DNA of 64,000 nucleotides. Source: Akanthomyces muscarius (Eukaryota; Ascomycota; Sordariomycetes; Hypocreales; Cordycipitaceae). The stretch spans positions 6,138,001 to 6,202,000 of the forward strand of contig NC_079241.1 in NCBI RefSeq assembly GCF_028009165.1, given 5' to 3'. Below are positions 5,834 through 64,000 of this stretch, piece by piece. Numbering within the stretch: the stretch's first letter is position 1; every line of letters starts with the position of its first letter. The position numbers and the translations under genes were made by a program. Below the pieces are notes generated by a model. That model was given only the letters and a program-made list of their open reading frames with translations. It did no database searches and was not told the DNA's origin.

Positions 5834-7758
5834 TTAATTGTTGTGCTCCAGATCGGCAGCCTTGCCGACGCCGGGCTGGTTTTGGCCAACGTATTCCGAC
5901 TTCTTGAGCATGTTCCACTCATCTTCCTCGGAATCGAGGTGGCGGAAGCAGAACCAGAAAGCAATACCTCCAACAAGGGCGATGACAGAGATGGAAGTGT
6001 AGTTCCAGACAAGAAGAGGGTCCGTGGACAGGGGCGTGAAGGCCTGGCCAATGGCAGCGGAGACAGCGCTCATAAAGAGGTTGACACTCATGACCAGCGA
6101 CTTCATGTTCTCGGGAGCTTTAGAGAAGGCGTACTCATACGAAGTAACATTGGTCAAGAGTTCGGAGATACCGATGAAGATGTAGGGAAGACACTGAGCC
6201 CAGACGTTGATGTTCGCAGGAGCGCAGTTGACCTCCTCTCCTGCGTCGTTGGTGACTGTGCCATTGGCGTGCCATCCACAAGGGCTCTTCTGGTAGATGT
6301 AGTACTGCATGACGGCAGAAGCAACCATGGACAGAGTGGCCATGAAAAAACCAGCAGTCATTCTCTTGATGGGGGTAAAGGGAAGTCCTAGACGGCGGAG
6401 GAGAGGGTAGAGACCATGATCAAATATGGGAATCATGACAACAATAGAGATGGGGTTGAGGTTCTGGATAATGTCGTTGGGCACTCCGTGCAGCATCATG
6501 GTGCTAGCCTGGGTGGTCAAGTTACTGGTCATCTGGTTGTATGCCAGGAAGAAGACAGGCAGGAAGAGGAAGACCTTGCAAGCCATCAGACCACGGCGGA
6601 CCTCGTCAACCCAAGCATCGTCGTAAGTCATCCAAGACGGGCGCTCGCTGATGGCAACTTTGGAGGGGCGGGCGACATCCCAGTTGAAGTTGAAGGAAGA
6701 GGGGGAGCGCTTGCGGACATAGAACCACATCTTGAGGAATTTTTCCAGCAGAGACCCAGTGGGTGGTGTGAGTTTGTAATTCTTCTTCTGTGACCAGAGA
6801 ACGAAGGGGGCGAGAAGGAAGAGACCGGTGGGAATGAGGAAAGCGAGCCAGAAACCAACGTATTTCTCAACGTAGACCATGCCAATCTGGCCAGTAAGGG
6901 AACCAATGTTGATGCAGAGGTAAAAGTAGAGGAAGATACGGGTGTTGGTGATGGCAGGATCGACAATGACAAGTTCGCCCTTGCGTTCTTCAACGCGCAT
7001 GCGTGTGTCTTCATTTTGCTCAGCCAGAAGAGGGGAGACGTTGGCCTTGAAGAAGCCGGTACCGACGCAAAGGCAGAGAAGGCCGATGATGAAGGCGGCG
7101 AAGGAAGAATCAGGGTGAACAATAACACCAGGGGCGGAAGCAGCGACAAGGATGACGTGGGCAATGGTAGAGATACCAATGGCCAGGTGGAGAGTCCAGA
7201 AGCGACCCATGCGAGCATCAGCAATCCAGGCACTGCAAGAGGGGTTATTAGCAGGAATCACAAGGAGATTTTTTTAATAGATAGTACGTACCCAAGAAGA
7301 GGCATGATGTAGGCAAAGAACTGGTTGAACAAGCTCAAACCCTGGGCGGCCTGCGGACCCATCCCGAGGGCACCAGCCTGTGGGTGCTTGTCGCCTGGGA
7401 GAGGAGCGCCGGTGGTAGAGCCGTTGGGAAGCTTGTGGTTGACAAAGTTGGTGTAGAGGACAGCCGATCCGTAGTATGAGAAACGCTCACACAATTCAAC
7501 AAAGGCAATTGTCCACATAGCCCACTTGATCTTGCCGGAGACACGGCGCAGAGTGCGCTGTTGCTCTGGCGTGGGCTTGTCAGGCCAATCGTTGTCATCC
7601 GTGGTGACGCTGTGCTGATCAAAGTCATTTTGACGCTTCTCAGCAGCAAAGTCTTGCTGGTGCTTCTCATCGTCAATCGGGTGGATGCCGTGATGTTCGG
7701 GGTCCACAAGACCGGCGCGCGCAATGGCGTCGTTGTCGAGGTTGACGGTAGTCGTCAT
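5834..7758 (-). CDS. PTR2: PTR2-family proton-coupled peptide transporter (two exons)
   Basis: Imports di- and tripeptides with protons across the plasma membrane (POT/PTR family). Exons 7292-7758 and 5834-7232 join over a 59-base intron (GTACGT..TTGCAG) to give 621 aa, normal for fungal PTR2. The join restores FFAYIMPLLGAWIADARMG, the conserved TM2-TM3 region. ELCERFSYYG in TM1 is the ExxER-type proton-coupling motif of the family, and FYLCINIGSL matches the second PTR2 signature. The N-terminal ~85 residues are charged and probably cytosolic, as in yeast Ptr2 where this part controls turnover. TATA-like sequence lies ~150-170 bases upstream on the minus strand. Control by nitrogen source is known for the family; I see no decisive site here. 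Confidence 0.94.
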
Positions 7759-26332: not shown

Positions 26333-26908
26333 CTACAGAACGGCCAAGACACCGGCTAGCAGTACCGCCGCGCCGGCAATCGGACCAGCTGTTGCGGCGG
26401 CGCCTGGCGATGCCGTCGTGGGCTTGGCAGTAGAGCTTGTAGAAGCCATCGATGAAGCCGCAGAGCTCGTGATGGACGCCGTGTTGTTTCCGGCCACGCT
26501 CGAGGACTGCGCTGACGCGGTAGGAGCAGGTGTGCTGGTCGCCGCCTTGGCCGAAGCAGTGGCCGCAGCGCAGAATTTAGCAGCACCAGGAAGTACTTGC
26601 TCTTGAAGAAACTGTTAGCGAAACGGTGTGAAGAGAAGAGAAAGAAGAGCTCCGCTTGGGGCAGTTGGCTTACTGATGGCCTTGTCGGATCCGCAAGCGT
26701 CGAGGACGCAGGCAACTCCCTGGTTGTAAATGTCCTCGTAGTTTTTCTGGACGCACCAGCACACGGCGTCGTCGAGGGCGCAGTTTGTTACCTTTTGGGT
26801 GGCGTCGTCGAGGCACTTGAGGGAGCACTCGGGCAGGAAGTCGGCGCGGTTTTGGGCGGCGACGGACCAGGTGCTAGAAGCAACGAGGGCGATTGTGGCG
26901 ACCTTCAT
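26333..26908 (-). CDS. CFEM-domain, probably GPI-anchored, cell-surface protein (two exons)
   Basis: Exons 26674-26908 and 26333-26601 join over a 72-base intron to give 167 aa. A signal peptide (MKVATIALVASSTWSVAA) is followed by one CFEM domain with eight Cys: CSLKC, NC, CWC, AC, DAC and KFC. The last Cys is contributed by exon 2. The acidic LDD just before the CWC is where haem-binding CFEM proteins carry their ligand Asp. A Ser/Thr/Ala/Pro-rich stalk and a C-terminal hydrophobic tail (AGAAVLLAGVLAVL) with small residues upstream fit a GPI signal. Family roles include haem capture from the environment, adhesion and virulence. It is divergent from SIT1 and shares with it the ATCWGATAA cluster, which favours an iron-acquisition role (inference). 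Confidence 0.9.
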
Positions 26909-27570: not shown

Positions 27571-27579
27571 ATCTGATAA
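27571..27579 (+). promoter_or_regulatory. ATCTGATAA, iron-GATA-factor-type site
   Basis: Exact match to ATCWGATAA, the extended GATA motif reported for SreA-type iron repressors. It lies six bases left of the inverted pair and in the same divergent promoter. Confidence 0.6.
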
Positions 27580-27585
27580 AAAAAA

Positions 27586-27604
27586 TTATCTGATCATCAG
27601 ATAA
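27586..27604. promoter_or_regulatory. Inverted pair of ATCWGATAA sites
   Basis: TTATCTGATCATCAGATAA: two ATCAGATAA motifs, one per strand, separated by a single central base. About 730 bases upstream of SIT1 and 680 upstream of the CFEM gene. Plausible operator for an iron-responsive GATA repressor controlling both genes. Confidence 0.7.
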
Positions 27605-28331
27605 GATGCCCTGGCCTCGGCAACCACCTCCGTTTCCTGCAACGAACCCCGAGCTACTTTTTTCTGTTTCGACTCCACCACACCAAGCACGCAGGCCGCT
27701 TGAACTCAAGTGGTACTATCGAAAATGAAAATGAAATACACGAGGCATTTTCTCCACGGCCTGCTGCTGTACAAGTCGCAGTGTAGCACACCTCAGCTGA
27801 TCCCGTGCCCCCCAGTAGCGAGGCTGCAGGGCTCTTTTCCTGCTTCAAGCTTCCTATTTGCTCCGAACTAAACGATTAGGATCCCTCTCCTGCCTCTGCC
27901 CTGTAGAAAGAGCGACATGGCTCGCTGCATTGGCTTATGGAGCTGAAACCGCACCCAGTTCATTAATTCGTTCAGAGCCTTGTTGCCTGCATGGCTCCCG
28001 CACTTGTCTCCGCCCGTTGCCACTCTATACACATTATGCATACACTGATCTTGGCAAGCTCACTGAGAAAAAAACGATCAGCTTTTTTTCTTTCGGCCTT
28101 GGGCCCTGCGCAGGTTTTAAAGCCGGCCGTGCCCCCTCCCCCAAAGTTCGCATTTGCTTGCTGCGTTGTTCGTCTTTTTCAGCGCTGATCGCCAACTACC
28201 CGATTTTCAAAGGGCTTGGCTAGTTTTCCGCACCCCTTGATTCTTTAGAGTCGTCTCTCGGCGCATTCAAACTTTCGATCAGTCCTTCACCACTTTCTTG
28301 GCTGTTGTACACATATAATACGCCTGGGACG

Positions 28332-30219
28332 ATGGGTTTCTTCCCGAAGAAGTCCACGGCTGCAGAGCCGGAGATTGCGGCCGCGGCGCTGGAGCCCGGT
28401 GGTGTTGATGAAAAGGGCATCGCTACCGAACGATCGAGCGAGGAGGACTTTGGCACCGCCAAGCAGGCTGGTGTAAGAAAGATCGAGGCTGCGGCCGAGG
28501 TCTGGACCAAATGGGATCTCGTCACCGCCTATGGCTTGTGAGTATTTCGTCCATTGCCACTCCTAGAGCTCTTAGAAAGCATAAAAAGGTGCTAATCAGA
28601 CACAGAATCTGGCTCTACTACTTTGCCACTGCCACAGCCGAAGTCGTCACACGAACACTTAATCCCTTTGTGACCAGCTCCTTCGGCAAGCACTCTACTA
28701 GTGCTGCCGTCAATATCCTTTCTTCCATCATCGGCGGTCTGACCAAACTACCGCTGGCCAAGATCCTGGATACTTGGGGAAGACCTCAGGGTCTGGCGCT
28801 GATGCTCCTGATCTGGTGTCTGGGATACATCATGACCGCCTGTGCCAGGACCATCGAGACGTACGCTGCGGCTCTCGTATTTTCCGCGGTTGGGTAAGTT
28901 GACGCTCGATGCATGACGAAAGAAGACATGGAAGCAGATCGCAAACTAATAAGAAACTATCGTGTAGATCTCAAGGTGTTAGCTACTGCGTCACAGTCTT
29001 CATCGCCGATACTTCGTCGCTAAAAAACCGAGCTCTGATGTTGGCCTTTGCCACATCTCCATACATCATCACCACGCCCATCAGCGGATTCATCGGCAAA
29101 CGCATTTACAAAGACGCTGGATGGCGTTGGGGATTTGGTCTTTGGGCTATCGTTATGCCTATCATTGTGCTCCCGCTGTGCTTCGTTTTTCTTTGGAATC
29201 AGCGCAAGGCCAGGAGGCAGGGCGTGTTGGAACCAAGCAACACCAAAATTACCGCGCGCTCCGTCTACAACTATCTCGTTGAGATCGATATTGTTGGTCT
29301 TCTGCTTCTTGCTGGCGGATGGGCCTTGTTTCTCTTGCCATTCTCCCTCTACTCTTACCAGCCGCAGCAGTGGCGCGCACCGATCATCATCTGCTTCCTC
29401 ATCTTCGGCGCGCTTCTTCTCATCGGCTTCATTATCTGGGAGAAGTTTTTCGCTCCAGTCACTTTTATTCCGTACAAGCTTCTCATGGACCGCACAGTCT
29501 TCTTTGGAGGTCTGATGTTTACCTTTGTCTTCGCCAACTCAGCCATCTGGGGCAGCTACTTCACCTCGATGCTTTTGGTTGTGTGGGACATGGGCTTTGA
29601 TCAGACGACGTGGATCAACAATATTTACCGAATCGGCTCCTGCTTCGCGTCTATTATCCTCGGTGTTCTCATGCGCTTCACAGGACGCTTCAAGTGGGTT
29701 GCCACCATATACGGCATCCCTCTGATGCTTCTTGGGGTTGGCCTGATGCTCAAGTTCCGTCAGGCTAACGAGAAGATTGGATACGTTATCATGACCCAGA
29801 TCTTTGTTGCTTTCGCAGGTGGTCCCATCGTTGTTGCCGGCGAAATGGCGATGATGGCTCCCTCGGATCATCAGCATGTTGCTGTTGTCATCGCCATTCT
29901 CGACCTCTTTGCTAGTATTGGCTCTGCCATTGGCTCTACTATCTCTGGCGCCATTTGGACCGGCACTTTCAAGAATGAGCTGGCAAAGCGTCTACCATCC
30001 GATGCCCCTATTGACTCCATTTATGGGAGAATCGAGGTGCAGCTTGGATACGAGGAGGGCACAGCTATCCGGGCTGGTATCGCAGACGCTTACTCTGCCT
30101 CGCAGCGATACATGCTGGCTACCAGTGTCTGCTTCCTGGCTGTTGCTTGGGGTTGTGTCTGGATGTGGAGAGATATCAACATCCACAAAAAGAAGCAAGT
30201 TAAAGGAAACGTGGTTTAA
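28332..30219 (+). CDS. Siderophore-iron transporter, MFS SIT/ARN family (three exons)
   Basis: Proton-coupled importer of ferric siderophores at the plasma membrane. Exons 28332-28537, 28606-28893 and 28968-30219 (introns 68 and 74 bases) give 581 aa, typical for the family. A ~65-residue hydrophilic N-terminus precedes TM1. Family landmarks include AEVVTRTLNPFVTSSFGKHS in TM1, LPLAKILDTWGRPQG (motif A position), the TSPYIITTPISGFIG and DAGWRWGFGLWAI segment before TM6-7, and VVAGEMAMMAPSDHQHVA in TM10-11. The extracellular loop near IEVQLGYEEGTAIRAGI and the following Tyr-containing segment corresponds to the C-terminal loop needed by yeast Arn transporters. The bound siderophore cannot be predicted. 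Regulation by iron is suggested by the upstream ATCWGATAA cluster. Confidence 0.93.
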
Positions 30220-52057: not shown

Positions 52058-54074
52058 CTACACGCCTCGCTTTTTGGCCTCCTGGTCACTGCCATTTCCG
52101 GCTTCGATACTGCTAGTCGATGCAACATCATCGGCGGGGACCAAAACATTGGCACCGTAGTCATGATGGCCGTCGCTGCGTCGCGGCGGCGGAATCAGGA
52201 TGTCAAACCACCGCGGCACAATCAGGCCGGCTCCTATGAGAATCAGAGCAATGTGGCCAACTGCAAATCCAAAAATATGGAGCGGATCGTTTCGCAGCTC
52301 ATAGAATGATGGATATGAGAAGCTGTACACTATCGACAGTGTCGGCGCCGCAATATAACGAACCAGCGGTGCCCAGAACGCCGGAATCTTCCAGTTTTTA
52401 CCTTGCCCGACAATCTCATTCAAGTCGCGGCGAAGCTGATTACCCTGAAAATTGGCATTAGTTTTGTCAGAGGAATTCGCCAGAGGGTACACGTACCGAG
52501 TAAAAAGCAACGAACCAAACGCGTGCGGCAAAGACGCTCTTGTTCCACCACTTGGGGGCTACTGCATCGGGCGTCCTCGCCAGCAGTACAGATCCAACCA
52601 AGCCGACGATGAAGATACCAAACCCTACGCATGCGCCAGCAACCGGTGAAACAGCCTGTGCGATTGTGACGCCAAGCACCATGCCCCCGAAGAAGCCGCC
52701 GTTGAATGTCAGGAAAGCCGGCAGGCCGACTTGCCCAACGACGTCGCGCCATCGATACAGTGTTGTCGATGTAACGCACTCAGCCCAGACGACAAATACC
52801 AGGCCTACATCGTTGATCCAGCGATCCACGCCGCCCAGCAAATAGAATCCAAATTCTGTGCAGTACGGCAGCGTCAGGCAGAAAAATGCAACCACGACAG
52901 CGGTTACTACCCACGGCCGACTAAATCGCGGGTGGGCATCCATGATTAAAGTGACAATGGCATCAACCATGGCAAAAGCCGAGCTGTATCCAAGAACCAT
53001 GAGAGTAAAGAACAGCATGACGGCCCAGAAGTTGGCACCAGGCATCTGCGTGACGGCTGTGGGCAGTGTGATGAAGCCCACCACAAAACTGCCGAGTCGC
53101 TCGCCACTGCCAGGTACGATGCCGAGAAAGCCGATCACGCCATATACAATGAACGCCGCAACATTTTCGAACAAGACGTTGCTACTCACAATCATGATCG
53201 AGTCCATGACCGCATTAGAGTACTTTTGGTTGTAAGATGCATACGACGTGAAATAGCCGAAACCGACACCCGTGGAAAAGAAGACCTGCCCACATGCCGT
53301 CTGCCAGATGGTGCCTTTCGCCAGCTGGCTGCCGTTCCAAGTAGCCCAGAAGTATCGAACGCCGCGGGCGGCATTCTCGAGCGAGAGAGCTCGGCCGATG
53401 AGGACAAAGGTAATGACAATAGGGAGGCCCATCGTAAAGTACACGACACGGCCTGTAAGGCCGACGCCGCGAAAGATGGAAATCCACACCAGAAACCAGG
53501 TGAAAACAGCCCAGCCGACAGTCTCGCCAATGACTGCCACGCCAGGGTACTGGACATATTTTGTGACCGAGGATCCGTCGGCGGAGAAACTGCCCGGGAT
53601 CGGGTCGACATTGGCAACGACGTCTTGCATGTAAAATTCTTCGCTTCGGCCCGTCCAAGGCAGAGGGCTCTTGAAGGAATTGCGAAAGTAAATCATGATC
53701 CACGCCAAGTTGACCACAAAATACGGACTAACCACCGTCCCGACGTAGATGAGCGAGAGGCCGGCGCCCTTGAGGCGGTGGTTGATGTTGTTGTAGGCGA
53801 CGACGCAGCCTCCGCGGTAGGCTTGCCCAATGGCGATCTCGAGAACCAGGACCGGTATGGCGATGAGGAAGACGCAGAGCAAGTACGGAATGAACCACTG
53901 CAGCCCGTGGTTGTTGAACGTCTGGCTGGGATAGCGCAACAGGTTTCCCATGCCCGCGCAGCCACCCATGGAGGCGAGCAGGAAAGCGGCCCGCGACGGC
54001 CATTGATCGCGGCCATCGGGAGACTTGCTACTCTTGGGCGCAACGATATTTACGAATTTTGTAAACGCGCCCAT
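52058..54074 (-). CDS. SLC6-type sodium:neurotransmitter symporter family transporter (two exons)
   Basis: Polytopic membrane protein of 654 aa from exons 52497-54074 and 52058-52444 (52-base intron). The start at 54074 (MGAFTKFVN) is preferred to an upstream Met that adds a Cys-rich leader. TM1 contains GGCAGMGNLLRYPSQTFNNHG, matching the unwound TM1 ion and substrate site of the family (usually GNVWRFP). PVLVLEIAIGQAYR in TM2, the TM3 Tyr segment SLIYVGTVVSPYF and TACGQVFFSTGVGFGYFTSYAS in TM6 are also conserved. About twelve helices are expected with a long cytosolic tail. Animal members carry amino acids, GABA or monoamines with Na+; fungal members are poorly characterised, so amino-acid uptake is an inference. 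Confidence 0.92.
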
Positions 54075-55270
54075 GTTGAAGGATGCTGCTACTGGAGCAG
54101 GCGTTGATATTTGAGGAACGATGTCATGTAGTGTCGGCAAGGCGATTCGGTGTCGGGTAAGGATGGAACAGACAAAGATGCAAGCGCATGGCAATCTGAG
54201 ATAGAGATATTTCGCGGGACATGCGACTTTTTAAGAGGGAACAGGGTTATCTAGACGAGGCCGTCTCGGCCGATGATGACATCGAAACATGCAAGGAAGG
54301 AGCGGAGAAGGCTTCTTGGCAAAGGTACATGCGCTGTCTGGCAACCTTGAACTTTTTCATTTGATCGCTCGCCGGTCCAACATGTCGACATTGCCCGCCC
54401 CTTTTTTAGCAAAACTTGAATCTCCATGAGGATGCTTGGCGAAAACTCATGGCTGGCCTGCCTACCAAAGCTTACCAGTTTACACTAGTTACAAGTGCAA
54501 AGAACCTAAAGAGTTATGAATGTGGGTTTCGGCGATTTTGTATCCCGCATCTCGCTTCTGCTGAGACATGATGCGAATAGCATCTGTTGCGCGCAAGGAA
54601 ATAACAGACAGCTCACTGCCGCTCGTCTGGGAATAGAGCCCAGCTTCGGTGTTTTGTTAGGATCGGCAGCCACCTCCGCAGGACAGCCAAGGCGCTTGTG
54701 TGGATAAGCATAAAACAACGTTTGAACGACGGGTCGCTGTGATAGGCGCAGAAACGGGATGCTTCTCCAGCGCCGAGGCACTAAACACACACAGCAGGAT
54801 TGCGCAGTGTCTTGGCCTGATCCTTTGTGTGTAATAGAGTTGGACGCAAAGCGTTTCGGCTATGCCGTTCAAATATTCTCTTTAAAACAGTTGCCAGTAC
54901 TAGCTACCAGGAGGATGGCCGTCAGAGGCAAAAGAGGACATTGTAGATTTTGCGTGGCACAGCCCCATCTTGGCGAGTCGCTTGGTTTACGAGTTTGCGC
55001 TCCTCTGGCAATTATCCTGACTCGTCAGGCTACTTCGGCGACAAAGCTCCGTGGCGGCGCCATGGTGATGTGTGCCAAGGACGCCGTCCGCTCCGCTTCA
55101 ACGAGGCTATTCAGCTCTGGAGGAAATACCAACAAAAAAGACGTGGCAAAATTAAAGTGAAAAGTTGCAAATTAGGAAAGGTACAAATCACATAGTAAAT
55201 GGAAAATCAGACAAATCAATTTCCGAGTAAGTCAACTCGTCAGCATCCCGTACAATTTTTTTTCATTTAC
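54075..55270. other. Intergenic region upstream of SLC6
   Basis: Promoter and flank of the SLC6 gene. No other gene is supported. From about 55200 the sequence becomes strongly AT-rich, leading into the mutated repeat copy. Confidence 0.5.
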
Positions 55271-59978: not shown

Positions 59979-62179
59979 TCATTTCCGTGATAGTTTCTTC
60001 TTGCACCAGCTTCTAAAGTCGAGGCGACCAATGACACCGCTTTGAGCGCGGTCTTGATCGATGGCTTTCAGGTCCACGTCTTCAATGGCCAAAGACACCA
60101 GGAATGAAACGCCCAGAAAAGCGACGGAGGCAACGAGGAGAATATGCATGACTTCGGTGTAACTTTGGTTGATGGCAATGCGCTCGGGGCTGCCCGCTGC
60201 AAAAGAGGTGGCGACAGTGAACGAGTTTTGTATGCCAGTGGCCTGCGACTTGGACGCCTCTGGAAGATGTGCTTGCAGTTTGGCCAGCAGCAGTCTTGTC
60301 CAGATCAAGCCCGATATTGCGTTTCCAATAGCACCGCCAATAGCTCGCGCCGCTTCGTAAAGCGTCGTCACGTTGGCGACATCTAAGATTTGTAAGTCAC
60401 TTTTCAGGCGCTGCTAAGATTAGAAGAAACTCACCTTGGTGACTGGCAACAGATTGCACCGCCGTCTGCGCAACAATACTAATCATGCCAGAGCCTCCGC
60501 TCGCAATAACCTGTCCCATGACGATCTGCGCCAGCGTGGCGTCCCCGTTGGAGTACCGAATCATGAACCCCCCGCCAATCAGCTTGACGAGCGTGCCCGC
60601 GACGACCACCCACTTGCACTTGCCGGTGTACTTGACCACAAACGCAGCCGCGAGGCCGATCGCGGCGGTGGACACGCCCTGCGCCGCCACGACGTTGGTG
60701 GCGGCCTTGGGCGACAGGCCGTTGACGACGACCAGGAACGAGTAAAAGTACGGCTGCCAGAGGTAGTAGCTCAGGAAGAAAAAGGCCTCGGTCAGGCAGC
60801 CCGCGGCGACGGTCCTGCTCATGGCAAGGCGCAGGGGCATGATTGGATGGCGGGCAATGTACATCTCGTACAGGACAAAGCCGGTGAAGCTGAGTGTGCC
60901 GGCGACAATCATGGCGAGGATCTGCGGCGAGGTCCATCCGCCATGGAAGCGGACGGTGAGAGTCATGGGTAGCAGAAGTAGCACCAGGCCGGCGACGAAG
61001 AGGAACAAGCCGGGGATGTCTGCCTGTGCCCATTTTGAAATAAATACGTCCGTCACCCTGCCCATGCGTGTCTTGTCTCTTGACCTCTGGTGGCCCCAGA
61101 TCGAGACGAGAAGCGGGATCGACACAACAGGCACAATTATCGCCCTAGAACAGGTTAATCACTCCGGCGTCCCGTCCTTGCGGAGGTGCTTCTCTTACCA
61201 CATGCCATAGCCCCTATTTAGCAAACACAATTAGCTCCGCGATTTCCGTATATCCTTGAGTCTGAACTTACCATCGCCAGTGCGTCGGCACGAGCGCCTC
61301 CACCATAGGCCCGCCAATCCACGCCGTCACGATGGGCGGCGCGTACAGCAACGAGCCAAATACCGCTCGGTTCGCGAGCGTCGTCGTGTCCGCTGCCAGG
61401 ATCTGCTGCAGAAACACAACGCCCACCTGTCCGACCGAGTAAAAGACCTGGCCGGCCGCCAGGGCGCCGAGGTTCCGCGATGCCGCGTTGACGACGAAGC
61501 CCAGCACAATGGACACGAGCGACACGCTCAAGGCCTCGGCGCGGCCCGACGCATCGGCAATCTTGGCCATGACGGGCTTTGTCGCTGCGTTTCTGTTTGA
61601 TGTGTGAGGACAAGGGGACGCCGGTGGAATGAGGCCGACACGGCAAAAAAGAAATAATACTCACAATACGCTTTGCAATGTGCTGATGGCGGGAAGCATG
61701 GAATGGGAGTTGAACTCGGACAGCGCGTAGGGCTGGTAGGACGAGACGGTGAGGCTGTCGAGACTGAGCGCCATGGCGAGCAGCATCATGCCCGTCCAGG
61801 CGACGAGCACGGCGGTCGGCGTCCATGAGCGGGTAACTTGCTCAATCTTTTGGACGCCAGTGGGCATGCTCTGCTGGCCAGCAGAGCCTGTGTGGTTCGG
61901 ATCCTCTGGCGCATCTTTCTCGAATTCCTCAAAGCTAACGTCGTCGCTGTCGTCGTCATCGTCGTAGAATCTTTTTGCGCAGGGCTGGACACTTGGTGGC
62001 ACTGGCGTGATGACGTCCTCTGCCACGCGATCAGCCTCACGTTTCCTTTGTCTCTTCTCCTTCCGCTTCTTCTGACGCGGCGGCTGTCGGCGGGTCTGCA
62101 AGGGAACATCGCTACCGGCTCGCGGCGGCACCAGAAACGGGGCCGGCGACGCAAAAGGCACCATCTGCGAGTAACTCAT
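59979..62179 (-). CDS. Siderophore-iron transporter, MFS SIT/ARN family (five exons)
   Basis: Second ferric-siderophore importer, 654 aa. Exons are 61665-62179, 61272-61592, 61199-61213 (15 bases), 60435-61144 and 59979-60382, with introns of 72, 58, 54 and 52 bases. The microexon completes HWRWGYGMWAI, a strongly conserved SIT segment, and cannot be skipped without loss of it. TM1 and its loop read SLTVSSYQPYALSEF, then SMLPAISTLQSV and TKPVMAKIADASGRAEAL (motif A position). VASHQDVANVTTLYEAARAIGGAIGNA and SPERIAINQSYTEVM are the C-terminal landmarks. The N-terminus is unusually long (~115 residues) with a Lys/Arg-rich stretch (RQKKRKEKRQRKREADR) and an acidic run (YDDDDDSDDVSFEEFEKD). An inverted ATCWGATAA pair lies ~465 bases upstream. 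Siderophore specificity unknown. Confidence 0.93.
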
Positions 62180-63432
62180 CTTGTCGACTACTGCTCATGA
62201 GAGAGAAGCATTGCAAGAGATGGAAAACTGTGCGCCAGGCAAGGGCCAGCAATACGAAGAAGAGAAGAAGGCTATGTACCTGATCCTTCAACCCCCACTC
62301 AAAGGTTACCTGCAGCATAGTATTCTGGCATCTTAGGAGGGGCTGGGTACTGTCGCCGGGTTGTACCGTTTAAATCCGACTTGGTGGGTGTCATCTACGA
62401 GTATACTGTACATTGGGTGACCAGGGCCACAACCGCCAGGACGCACTGGGGCATCAGCGCATAATCATGACCCAACAAGGTACAGGGAACATCTAAATGG
62501 CTCGTTCTTATTCGACGTAGCTACCAGTAGAAAGAAATATATCAGAGCACCCTTGTGTACGGTTACACATTGTCCAGTGGAGCGAAGCTCGCAGAGGCGG
62601 GGGTGAAAGGGGGTATTAGCCTCGTGTCAACGTGAATGCATCTTATCAGATGATCTGATAAGCACTAACCTTAGCTACGACGTGCACCGAGCCTGCCCTT
62701 CCCGCTAGCAACGGACCCAAGTTTTTTCCCCAGGGACGTTGCAATCCCTACCAGCGCAGTGGATGTGCGGAACTTTTGCTCTCGGCCCCATCCTTCATTG
62801 GGCTAAGCTTGACAAAGCCCTTGGGTATTTGTGCTCGGCTTGGGCCGGAGAACCGATCATTTGCCCAGGCAAGACTCGTGAGTGGTGCGTGCGCGTAAGC
62901 TGCCACATCGGGCCATGTTGAGCAGTGGCTGTGCTCTCACTTCCAAAGCGAAAGCGACGGCTAGGCTGTGTCAGTGTGGCATTTCAGGAATTGGGCTGCA
63001 TCCGAGGCCGGCCCTTTGCTCGCTGGTGATTCACACCACCCCGCATCGGCTTACTGGTCCCCCGGCCGGCCTCGTCCTAGTTTATGTCCGATTGTGCCCG
63101 GGCCGGTCGACAGAAGGGCGTGCAGTTCACGCTCGAAGCATGGCAGAATCGACGGCAGAAGCAGTCTTCTAAATTGAGCGCGCATGTAATTCCGCCTTTT
63201 GAAAAGTCACATCCTCGGCTTTTCTTACATTCATCTGCAAATGTCGACCTCAGCCGCAAACGACTCACCGGGCGGCGCGCCCGTGTATAAGTAGCGTCGG
63301 CAGTCCGATGAAGGACCCCGCTCACTCCTCGAGGGATCCCGGCTTCCACTTACACACAGCATTAACCAAAGTATCTCGAATCCCATTAAGAAAAATCGCT
63401 TTTGAGAAGAAGCCAGCAAGAACAGACCAAAA
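62180..63432. other. Divergent promoter region, SIT2/O-methyltransferase
   Basis: Contains the inverted ATCWGATAA pair at 62643-62661 and a reverse CCAAT (ATTGG at 62412-62416). No further gene is supported; small frames on either strand lack similarity. Confidence 0.6.
62643..62661. promoter_or_regulatory. Inverted pair of ATCWGATAA sites upstream of SIT2
   Basis: TTATCAGATGATCTGATAA: two ATCTGATAA motifs, one per strand, with one central base, the same geometry as at 27586-27604. Flanking C and G extend the symmetry by one base on each side. Likely operator for an iron-responsive GATA repressor. Confidence 0.72.
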
Positions 63433-63934
63433 ATGACGCCGTCCCGTCCCCCGCAGAACCCCATGGAGGGCACCCCGCCGCACATCCTCGCCCTGCTCGA
63501 CCGGCTGCACGCCGAGTCGCTCGCGCAGGAGAAGCTCCTGGACCGCTCCGTCTTTGCGGGCGCCGCCTCGGACGAGGCCAAGAAGGCGGCGGTGCGCGAC
63601 AAGTTCATCGCGCTGGACCAGGACAAGAGCCAGTACGTGTACGCGCTGGCCCGCGCCGCCGACGCGCGCACCATTGTCGAGGCCGGGACGTCGTTTGGCG
63701 TCAGCACCATCTACCTGGCCCTCGCCGCGAGCGCCAACGCCAACGCCGCAGGGGGCCGGGGCAAAAAGGCAAATGTGATTGCCACCGAGTACGAGCCGAC
63801 AAAGGCGGCGAGGGCGCGCGGCTACTGGGCCGAGTGCGGCGAAGTGGTGACGGGGGCGATTGATCTGCGCGAGGGAGACTTGAGGGAGACGCTCAAGGAG
63901 AATCTGGAGGAGGTTGACCTCTTGCTTCTTGATA
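63433..63934 (+). CDS. SAM-dependent O-methyltransferase, partial (first exon)
   Basis: N-terminal 167 residues of a small-molecule methyltransferase. The fold resembles the caffeoyl-CoA/catechol type: DQDKSQYVYALARAADARTIVEAGTSFGVSTIYLALA is the helix plus SAM motif I region (EAGTSFGVST), VIATEYEPTKAARARGYW is motif II with the acidic ribose ligand, and LREGDLRETL then VDLLLLD follow, the last being the metal or substrate-site Asp region. A donor (GTAAGA) at 63935 ends the exon in phase 1, and a branch-like GCTAAC lies near the window edge, so the rest is beyond 64000. Reading on would give a stop within 20 codons. It is divergent from SIT2. Substrate unknown; relatives methylate catechols or hydroxylated metabolites. 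Confidence 0.85.
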
Positions 63935-64000
63935 GTAAGAGACGACGTGATACTGCGTTGGGCCTGTCACAACGCGAGGAGCTTTGCTAACTTTGAGTCT

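What the first reader, a model, noticed from the sequence alone, without database searches (positions are those of the whole stretch)
27571..27604. Triple ATCWGATAA cluster in the CFEM/SIT1 divergent promoter
One forward ATCTGATAA and, six bases on, an inverted pair TTATCTGATCATCAGATAA. ATCWGATAA is the extended GATA motif reported for SreA/SRE/Urbs1-type iron repressors. Three exact matches in 34 bases, in the only region between a CFEM protein and a siderophore transporter, is unlikely to be chance.
Basis: partly seen in the sequence, partly recalled or inferred. Interest (0 to 1): 0.8.

Follow-up and report, generated by a model that had tools for sequence, protein, structure and literature searches.

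The report
Iron-repressor operator cluster in siderophore promoter
A short, nearly symmetrical DNA element between a siderophore-transporter gene and a surface-protein gene of an insect-killing fungus looks like a landing site for the known iron-sensing repressor SreA, and its few exact copies in this genome lie at siderophore genes.

Summary
It is not chance. The 19-bp pair TTATCWGATNATCWGATAA occurs exactly at 3 places in 36.2 Mb (reversed-pattern control 0): this one, a second in the window at 62643-62661 (upstream of SIT2, a MirC-like siderophore transporter; not in the finding), and the promoter between a sidA-like gene and an NRPS gene. One of two single-mismatch copies lies in a probable second siderophore cluster. 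Single ATCWGATAA motifs lie upstream of 10 of 12 testable SIT-family loci (SIT1 and SIT2 included) and of FTR1, but of 0 of 17 other CFEM stretches. The genome encodes the expected regulator twice: two intact SreA-type proteins with two GATA fingers and a C-X5-C-X8-C-X2-C linker. The SreA-operator reading is well supported; binding and iron response remain untested, and control of the CFEM gene is less certain than that of SIT1. The motif itself is known (A. fumigatus SreA). Less ordinary are the rigid dyad spacing, its occurrence in divergent promoters, an adjoining GATG, and the second SreA.

The parts
27571..27579 (+). single SreA-type motif ATCTGATAA
   Evidence: exact match
27586..27604 (.). 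19-bp inverted pair TTATCTGATCATCAGATAA (1-bp spacer), proposed SreA operator
   Evidence: the same 19-mer, on the other strand, at C2:841641-841659 between sidA-like and NRPS genes
27605..27608 (+). adjoining GATG, shared with 3 of the other 4 copies of the pair that have 0 or 1 mismatch
   Evidence: seen post hoc
26333..26908 (-). CFEM-domain gene (one intron, my splice model), signal-peptide-like start and GPI-like tail by eye; ATG 663 bp from the cluster
28332..30219 (+). SIT1, siderophore-iron transporter of the MFS (3 exons, 581 aa); ATG 728 bp from the cluster
62643..62661 (.). second 19-bp inverted pair TTATCAGATGATCTGATAA, same 1-bp spacer; GATG adjoins on the minus-strand reading
59979..62179 (-). 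SIT2, MirC-like siderochrome-iron transporter (my model 650 aa, 99% to the annotated 654 aa); ATG 464 bp from the second pair
63433..64000 (+). methyltransferase gene (Methyltransf_24), divergent from SIT2; ATG 772 bp from the second pair; runs off the window

Best explanation
The cluster is an operator for the fungus's SreA-type GATA repressor. When iron is plentiful, SreA in its iron-bound form sits on the three ATCWGATAA elements and represses SIT1, and probably the divergent CFEM gene as well. When iron is short, SreA lets go and the genes can be switched on. The same element at 62643-62661 does this for SIT2. Shown here: the motif, its rarity as a pair, its concentration at iron-acquisition genes, and intact SreA-type genes in the same genome. 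Inferred from other fungi: binding, direction of regulation and iron dependence.
For: The exact 19-bp pair occurs at 3 genome places, control 0: SIT1/CFEM, SIT2/methyltransferase, and between a sidA-like gene (Lys_Orn_oxgnase E 3.6e-80) and an NRPS gene with a condensation domain. Of two one-mismatch copies, C4:3880005 lies between an AMP-binding gene (NRPS-like; no condensation domain in the stretch fetched) and an acyl-CoA ligase, next to an Acetyltransf_8 gene and a SIT fragment. Three ATCWGATAA lie upstream of another NRPS gene at C2:3869-3873 kb, beside ABC-transporter and SIT genes. Single motifs lie upstream of 10 of 12 testable SIT-family loci (SIT1, SIT2 included) and the one FTR1 locus, against 0 of 17 other CFEM stretches and 0 of 4 weaker MFS hits. 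Fisher SIT versus CFEM p = 3e-6; 8 of 10 without SIT1 and SIT2, p = 2e-5. SRE1 and SRE2 carry two GATA fingers and C-X5-C-X8-C-X2-C. Published, passages only: SreA-regulon motif (PMC2610380); FgSreA ChIP-qPCR at promoters with ATCWGATA (PMC10602907); SreC yeast one-hybrid with ATCWGATAW boxes and iron-dependent EMSA (PMC10938068).
Against: No binding, ChIP or expression data for this species were found or could be produced. Two of 12 testable SIT loci lack the motif: C6:3442648, the closest full-length paralogue of SIT1 by score, and C8:647147, whose matched stretch holds stops, perhaps introns. Two of three Acetyltransf_8 loci lack it. Two clusters, C2:2686844 (near a Pyr_redox_2 oxidoreductase) and C4:4830902 (no clear gene), are not obviously iron genes, nor is the one-mismatch copy at C1:6710857 (BIM1-like copper gene). 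Neither SRE gene has the motif in 9.9 kb round it. With up to two mismatches the pair is no commoner than its control: 7 versus 10 places. Conservation in other species could not be checked.
Confidence: 0.87

Rival explanations
1. The cluster is read by another GATA factor, such as the nitrogen regulator AreA/NIT2, which favours paired HGATAR sites (recalled), rather than by SreA.
For: The genome has 15 GATA-finger matches, only four of them in the two SreA-type genes. HGATAR cores are shared by such factors.
Against: The full ATCWGATAA extension, not only the core, is repeated, and it tracks siderophore genes (10 of 12 testable SIT loci). The exact 19-bp pairs fall at siderophore loci in 3 of 3 cases. 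Nitrogen promoters were not surveyed.
Confidence: 0.07
2. The operator serves SIT1 only; the CFEM gene merely shares the intergenic region and is not iron-regulated. (A sub-case of the best explanation, not an alternative to it.)
For: 0 of 17 stretches upstream of other CFEM genes carry the motif. The element lies about equally far from both ATGs (663 and 728 bp), so position does not tell.
Against: Copies of the pair with 0 or 1 mismatch sit between divergent genes at the four loci where both flanking genes matched a family, which suggests two-way use. CFEM proteins of some fungi take up haem iron (recalled).
Confidence: 0.35
3. Chance or a dispersed small repeat: the 19-mers are copies of a mobile or duplicated sequence with no regulatory role.
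For: The copies at 27586 and 62643 share 24 bp (91.7%) including an adjoining GATGC.
Against: Among 1.2-1.4-kb stretches round six clusters no alignment between different clusters is longer than 27 bp at E <= 1. The third motif of the triple has the opposite orientation relative to the pair at 27571 and at C2:841667. Expected number of such pairs by chance 0.0007.
Confidence: 0.02

Closest known systems
ATCWGATAA element of the Aspergillus fumigatus SreA regulon (PMC2610380, passages read)
   Same: Identical nine-base motif, over-represented upstream of SreA-regulated genes; 5.4-fold average enrichment reported there for 49 genes.
   Different: Here three copies lie in 34 bp, two as a fixed 1-bp-spaced inverted pair; the passages read call the single motif partially palindromic and mention palindromic GATA sites elsewhere, not this pair.
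ftrA/fetC bidirectional promoter element TTATCAATCAGATAA of A. fumigatus (PMC10294635, passages read)
   Same: ATCWGATAA preceded by a GATAA on the other strand, in a bidirectional iron-gene promoter.
   Different: Closer spacing and only one full ATCWGATAA; the element here is two full motifs tail to tail.
Fep1 of Pichia pastoris and Schizosaccharomyces pombe (PMC4992955 and PMC11840675, passages read)
   Same: Same regulator family: two GATA fingers and C-X5-C-X8-C-X2-C; P. pastoris Fep1 (residues 1-208) is a dimer with a [2Fe-2S] cluster; S. pombe Fep1 occupies siderophore-transporter promoters under high iron.
   Different: A. muscarius encodes two such proteins; nothing was measured here.
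SreC of Curvularia lunata and SreA of Fusarium graminearum (PMC10938068, PMC10602907, passages read)
   Same: SreC: yeast one-hybrid with ATCWGATAW boxes and EMSA on Fet3 and Sit1 promoters; FgSreA: ChIP-qPCR at promoters with ATCWGATA.
   Different: No dyad arrangement is mentioned in the passages read.

Membership tests
SreA/SRE/Urbs1/Fep1-type iron-responsive operator | extended GATA motif ATCWGATAA | tested here: met
   three exact copies
SreA/SRE/Urbs1/Fep1-type iron-responsive operator | lies upstream of an iron-acquisition gene | tested here: met
   relatives of SIT1 named siderophore or siderochrome iron transporter; 728 bp upstream of its ATG
SreA/SRE/Urbs1/Fep1-type iron-responsive operator | motif concentrated at iron-acquisition genes of the same genome | tested here: met
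   10 of 12 testable SIT loci and 1 of 1 FTR1 locus against 0 of 17 other CFEM stretches; 2 further SIT loci set aside (contig end; only the C-terminus matched); but 2 of 3 Acetyltransf_8 loci lack it
SreA/SRE/Urbs1/Fep1-type iron-responsive operator | genome encodes a two-finger GATA factor with C-X5-C-X8-C-X2-C linker | tested here: met
   SRE1 and SRE2
SreA/SRE/Urbs1/Fep1-type iron-responsive operator | bound by the factor in an iron-dependent way | not testable with these tools
   needs EMSA or ChIP
SreA/SRE/Urbs1/Fep1-type iron-responsive operator | iron-dependent repression of the flanking genes | not testable with these tools
   needs RNA from iron-replete and iron-starved wild type and sre deletions
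SreA-type GATA repressor (SRE1 and SRE2) | intact open reading frame with both fingers | tested here: met
   532 and 537 aa after removal of two introns by my model; dN/dS 0.20 between them
Siderophore iron transporter (SIT/Mir) family, SIT1 and SIT2 | full-length similarity to named siderophore transporters | tested here: met
   SIT1 57-63% to proteins named mirB, siderophore or siderochrome iron transporter; SIT2 70% to a Cordyceps protein named MirC
CFEM protein family | CFEM domain | tested here: met
   Pfam CFEM E 3.4e-9, over the curated cut-off
CFEM haem-iron receptor | haem or iron binding | not testable with these tools
   no solved relative at E <= 1 except one unrelated hydrolase at 0.87
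AreA/NIT2 nitrogen GATA site | paired HGATAR cores controlling nitrogen genes | tested here: inconclusive
   cores are paired, but the extended motif tracks siderophore genes; nitrogen promoters were not surveyed

The most novel reading that the evidence does not exclude
TWATCWGATNATCWGATWA, with an adjoining GATG on one or both sides, is a distinct two-fold operator: a dimer of SreA (SRE1/SRE1, or SRE1/SRE2) grips both half-sites at once and shuts both directions of divergent siderophore promoters, while isolated ATCWGATAA sites give weaker one-way control. The second SreA, whose finger-2 tail differs from that of the nine other sequences compared, may tune this. If so, siderophore promoters are graded by operator geometry.
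Probability: 0.3. Interest if true: 0.55.

Novelty: new member of a known kind. Interest (0 to 1): 0.4.

Why it matters
It gives a concrete, testable iron regulon for an insect-killing biocontrol fungus from sequence alone, and links the sidA/NRPS locus and a probable second siderophore cluster to one operator. The fixed 1-bp inverted spacing offers a direct way to ask whether the dimer seen for P. pastoris Fep1 is how this family reads DNA. A second SreA gene, kept under purifying selection, would bear on the assumption (recalled) that ascomycetes rely on a single iron GATA repressor.

Tried and rejected
Rejected: chance; duplicated promoter DNA (no alignment between different clusters longer than 27 bp); CFEM genes in general as targets (0 of 17). 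Led nowhere: solved structures for SIT1, SIT2 and CFEM gave no usable hit.

Limits. The listing of single motifs stops at 100 of 314 places (C1 whole, C2 to 3.87 Mb), so promoters elsewhere were fetched one by one; no unbiased intergenic background was measured, and the genome-wide density, also tripled, was used. Motif-to-gene distances on C1 and C2 came from comparing the lists (sums). The scan with up to 2 mismatches did not separate signal from control as a whole (7 versus 10 places); only its rows with 0 or 1 mismatch were used, and the control rows are not broken down by mismatch. The adjoining GATG and the divergent setting were noticed after the sites were chosen. Conservation in related fungi could not be checked: no fungal DNA collection was at hand.

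SIT set: the 13 loci with a row at E 1.2e-19 or better, plus C4:3885891 (E 2.8e-12, kept for 57% identity over 46 residues, 296-341 only, so its motifs 1.2 kb before the match are taken, not shown, to be upstream of the gene). C8:334 (contig start) and C2:4565028 (only residues 455-572 matched; its fetched stretch has a motif that may be inside the gene) were set aside before the count. Without C4:3885891 it is 9 of 11, p = 8e-6. The seven other weak loci (E 1.6e-12 to 6e-7 or so) were treated as non-SIT; four lay in the listed part of the genome. CFEM: 18 rows besides the window's, two of them adjacent on C6 and covered by one stretch, hence 17 stretches. The first stretches for two Acetyltransf_8 loci stopped 0.5-0.7 kb short of the match; the gaps were fetched later and also lack the motif.

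Literature: the 19-bp strings and TTATCWGAT had no occurrence in the 30 listed of 271 papers; 'ATCWGATAA' is in 11 papers (listing); no paper on a duplicated SreA was recognised among 8 listed of 9 (listing). Absence from print is not claimed beyond these searches.

Full report
WHAT IS THERE. The window is C1:6138001-6202000 of a 36.2-Mb, 12-contig genome. SIT1 in the window is 100% identical to LMH87_007091 of Akanthomyces muscarius on a contig of the same length as C1 (7,450,776 bases), so the organism is this insect-pathogenic biocontrol fungus (genome paper PMC10323777, abstract and section list seen; Cordycipitaceae). The reported cluster is exact: ATCTGATAA, six bases, then TTATCTGATCATCAGATAA, two ATCWGATAA motifs tail to tail with one base between. 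It lies 663 bp from the ATG of a CFEM gene and 728 bp from the ATG of SIT1, in a 1,423-bp divergent intergenic region.

MORE THAN CHANCE. The single motif is not over-represented genome-wide: 314 against 475 for the reversed control. Its clustering is what stands out. Pairs with 0-30 bp between are expected about 0.02-0.04 times per arrangement and were found 5 (tail to tail), 2 (head to head) and 3 (direct) times, with controls 0, 1 and 0; several share a cluster, and there are seven clusters. The exact 19-bp pair is found at three places, control 0, expected 0.0007. None of 20,000 simulated intergenic regions held three motifs.

WHERE THE PAIR OCCURS. (A) The finding. (B) Window 62643-62661, 464 bp upstream of SIT2, whose Cordyceps relatives are named siderochrome-iron transporter (one of them MirC; 70% identity), and 772 bp upstream of a divergent methyltransferase gene. 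(C) C2:841641-841659, between a sidA-like L-ornithine monooxygenase gene and an NRPS gene; a third ATCTGATAA follows after seven bases, so a triple recurs there with another orientation of the third motif. With one mismatch there are two more: (D) C4:3880005, between an AMP-binding (NRPS-like) gene and an acyl-CoA ligase, beside an Acetyltransf_8 gene and a SIT fragment; the comparison with a fusarinine-type SidD/SidI/SidF cluster is recalled, not tested; and (E) C1:6710857, between a BIM1-like copper-acquisition gene and an open frame without Pfam match. At A to D both flanking genes matched a family and diverge; at E the plus-strand partner is only an open frame.

REGULON TEST. With SIT1 as query, SIT-family loci were listed. 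Ten of 12 testable loci, SIT1 and SIT2 included, have ATCWGATAA within 1.5 kb upstream of the first matched residue (from the listing for C1 and most of C2, otherwise from fetched stretches; distances, SIT1 728 bp and SIT2 464 bp from their ATGs). The two without are C6:3442648 and C8:647147. Two more loci were set aside before the count (C8:334 at a contig start; C2:4565028, where only the C-terminus matched and the fetched stretch, which has a motif, may be inside the gene). The row C4:3885891 rests on residues 296-341 only; without it the count is 9 of 11. The one FTR1 locus has a motif 464 bp upstream. Of 17 stretches upstream of other CFEM genes none has it. Of four weaker, presumably non-SIT, MFS hits in the listed part of the genome none has it within 2 kb. 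Two of three Acetyltransf_8 loci lack it. SIT 10/12 against CFEM 0/17 gives p = 3e-6, 8/10 without SIT1 and SIT2 p = 2e-5; against the genome-wide density, even tripled, the chance of 10 of 12 is about 2e-12.

THE REGULATOR. A GATA search gave 15 matches; two loci have two fingers in one frame. After removal of two introns by my model they give SRE1 (532 aa, C1:5.068 Mb) and SRE2 (537 aa, C3:0.170 Mb), 80% identical, dS 0.52, dN 0.106, ratio 0.20, each with the C-X5-C-X8-C-X2-C linker (CPGGGRCNGTGGAEGCNGC in SRE1). The shared stretch is about 2.6 kb and the flanks differ. In a 10-sequence tree SRE2 is sister to the A. muscarius SRE1 and A. lecanii pair (support 96/92) on a long branch. The tail of finger 2 reads LHGVHRPV in the nine other sequences and LHRLHRPI in SRE2. 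Neither gene has ATCWGATAA in the 9.9 kb fetched round it. Whether relatives have a second copy was not settled: a search with SRE2 listed the best 120 of 2,264 proteins, the best at 78% identity.

HOW IT MOST LIKELY WORKS. By analogy with published members, iron-loaded SreA occupies ATCWGATAA elements and represses (passages in PMC2610380, PMC10602907, PMC10938068, PMC11840675). The symmetric pair fits the dimer shown for P. pastoris Fep1 (PMC4992955 passages). The three exact pairs share a 1-bp spacer; the two other tail-to-tail pairs have 2 and 21. GATG adjoins one side of the pair at A, B and E and both sides at D, but neither at C; this was seen after the fact. Binding, direction and iron response are inferred, not shown.

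VERDICT. Observation confirmed, interpretation supported, novelty modest: a new member of a known kind of operator, with an unusually regular dyad form and a duplicated regulator as the parts that deserve follow-up. On checking, the best explanation's confidence was put at 0.87 instead of 0.88, because the Acetyltransf_8 misses are now complete.

Noticed in passing
L029:3681-5384 (C1:5.068 Mb) and L030:3882-5601 (C3:0.170 Mb): Two intact SreA-type repressors in one genome, 80% identical with dN/dS 0.20; the second has a changed finger-2 tail and lies about 170 kb from a contig end near a frame that looks retroelement-like by eye.
   Followed up: partly
window 62643-62661: Second exact 19-bp inverted pair, in the divergent promoter of SIT2 and a methyltransferase gene; not in the finding given.
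   Followed up: yes
L059:2958-2976 (C1:6710857): One-mismatch copy of the pair with adjoining GATGC upstream of a BIM1-like copper-acquisition gene: a possible iron-copper link.
   Followed up: partly
L060 and L056 (C4:3876900-3885900): AMP-binding (NRPS-like), acyl-CoA ligase, Acetyltransf_8 and SIT-fragment genes together, with four exact ATCWGATAA and one one-mismatch half-site: looks like a fusarinine-type siderophore cluster.
   Followed up: partly
L016 and L037 (C2:3869000-3880710): NRPS, ABC transporter and SIT genes side by side, three ATCWGATAA upstream of the NRPS gene and one before the SIT gene: a further siderophore-type cluster.
   Followed up: partly
L013:4975-4995 (C2:823574): Head-to-head ATCWGATAA pair upstream of an MFS gene 18 kb from the sidA/NRPS pair; substrate unknown.
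   Followed up: partly
L012:4945-4964 (C2:2686844): Tail-to-tail pair with a 2-bp spacer upstream of a Pyr_redox_2 oxidoreductase gene; link to iron unknown.
   Followed up: no
L015:4903-4941 (C4:4830902): Tail-to-tail pair with a 21-bp spacer about 26 kb from a contig end, no clear gene beside it.
   Followed up: no
L033:662, L035:1001: GATAAGATG, the flank seen at the 19-bp pairs, also stands alone upstream of two SIT loci, one of which lacks ATCWGATAA; also found upstream of two CFEM genes, so of unsure meaning.
   Followed up: no
window 5837-7273 and 52470-54230: PTR2-type peptide transporter and SNF-type symporter genes in the same window; no ATCWGATAA near them.
   Followed up: no
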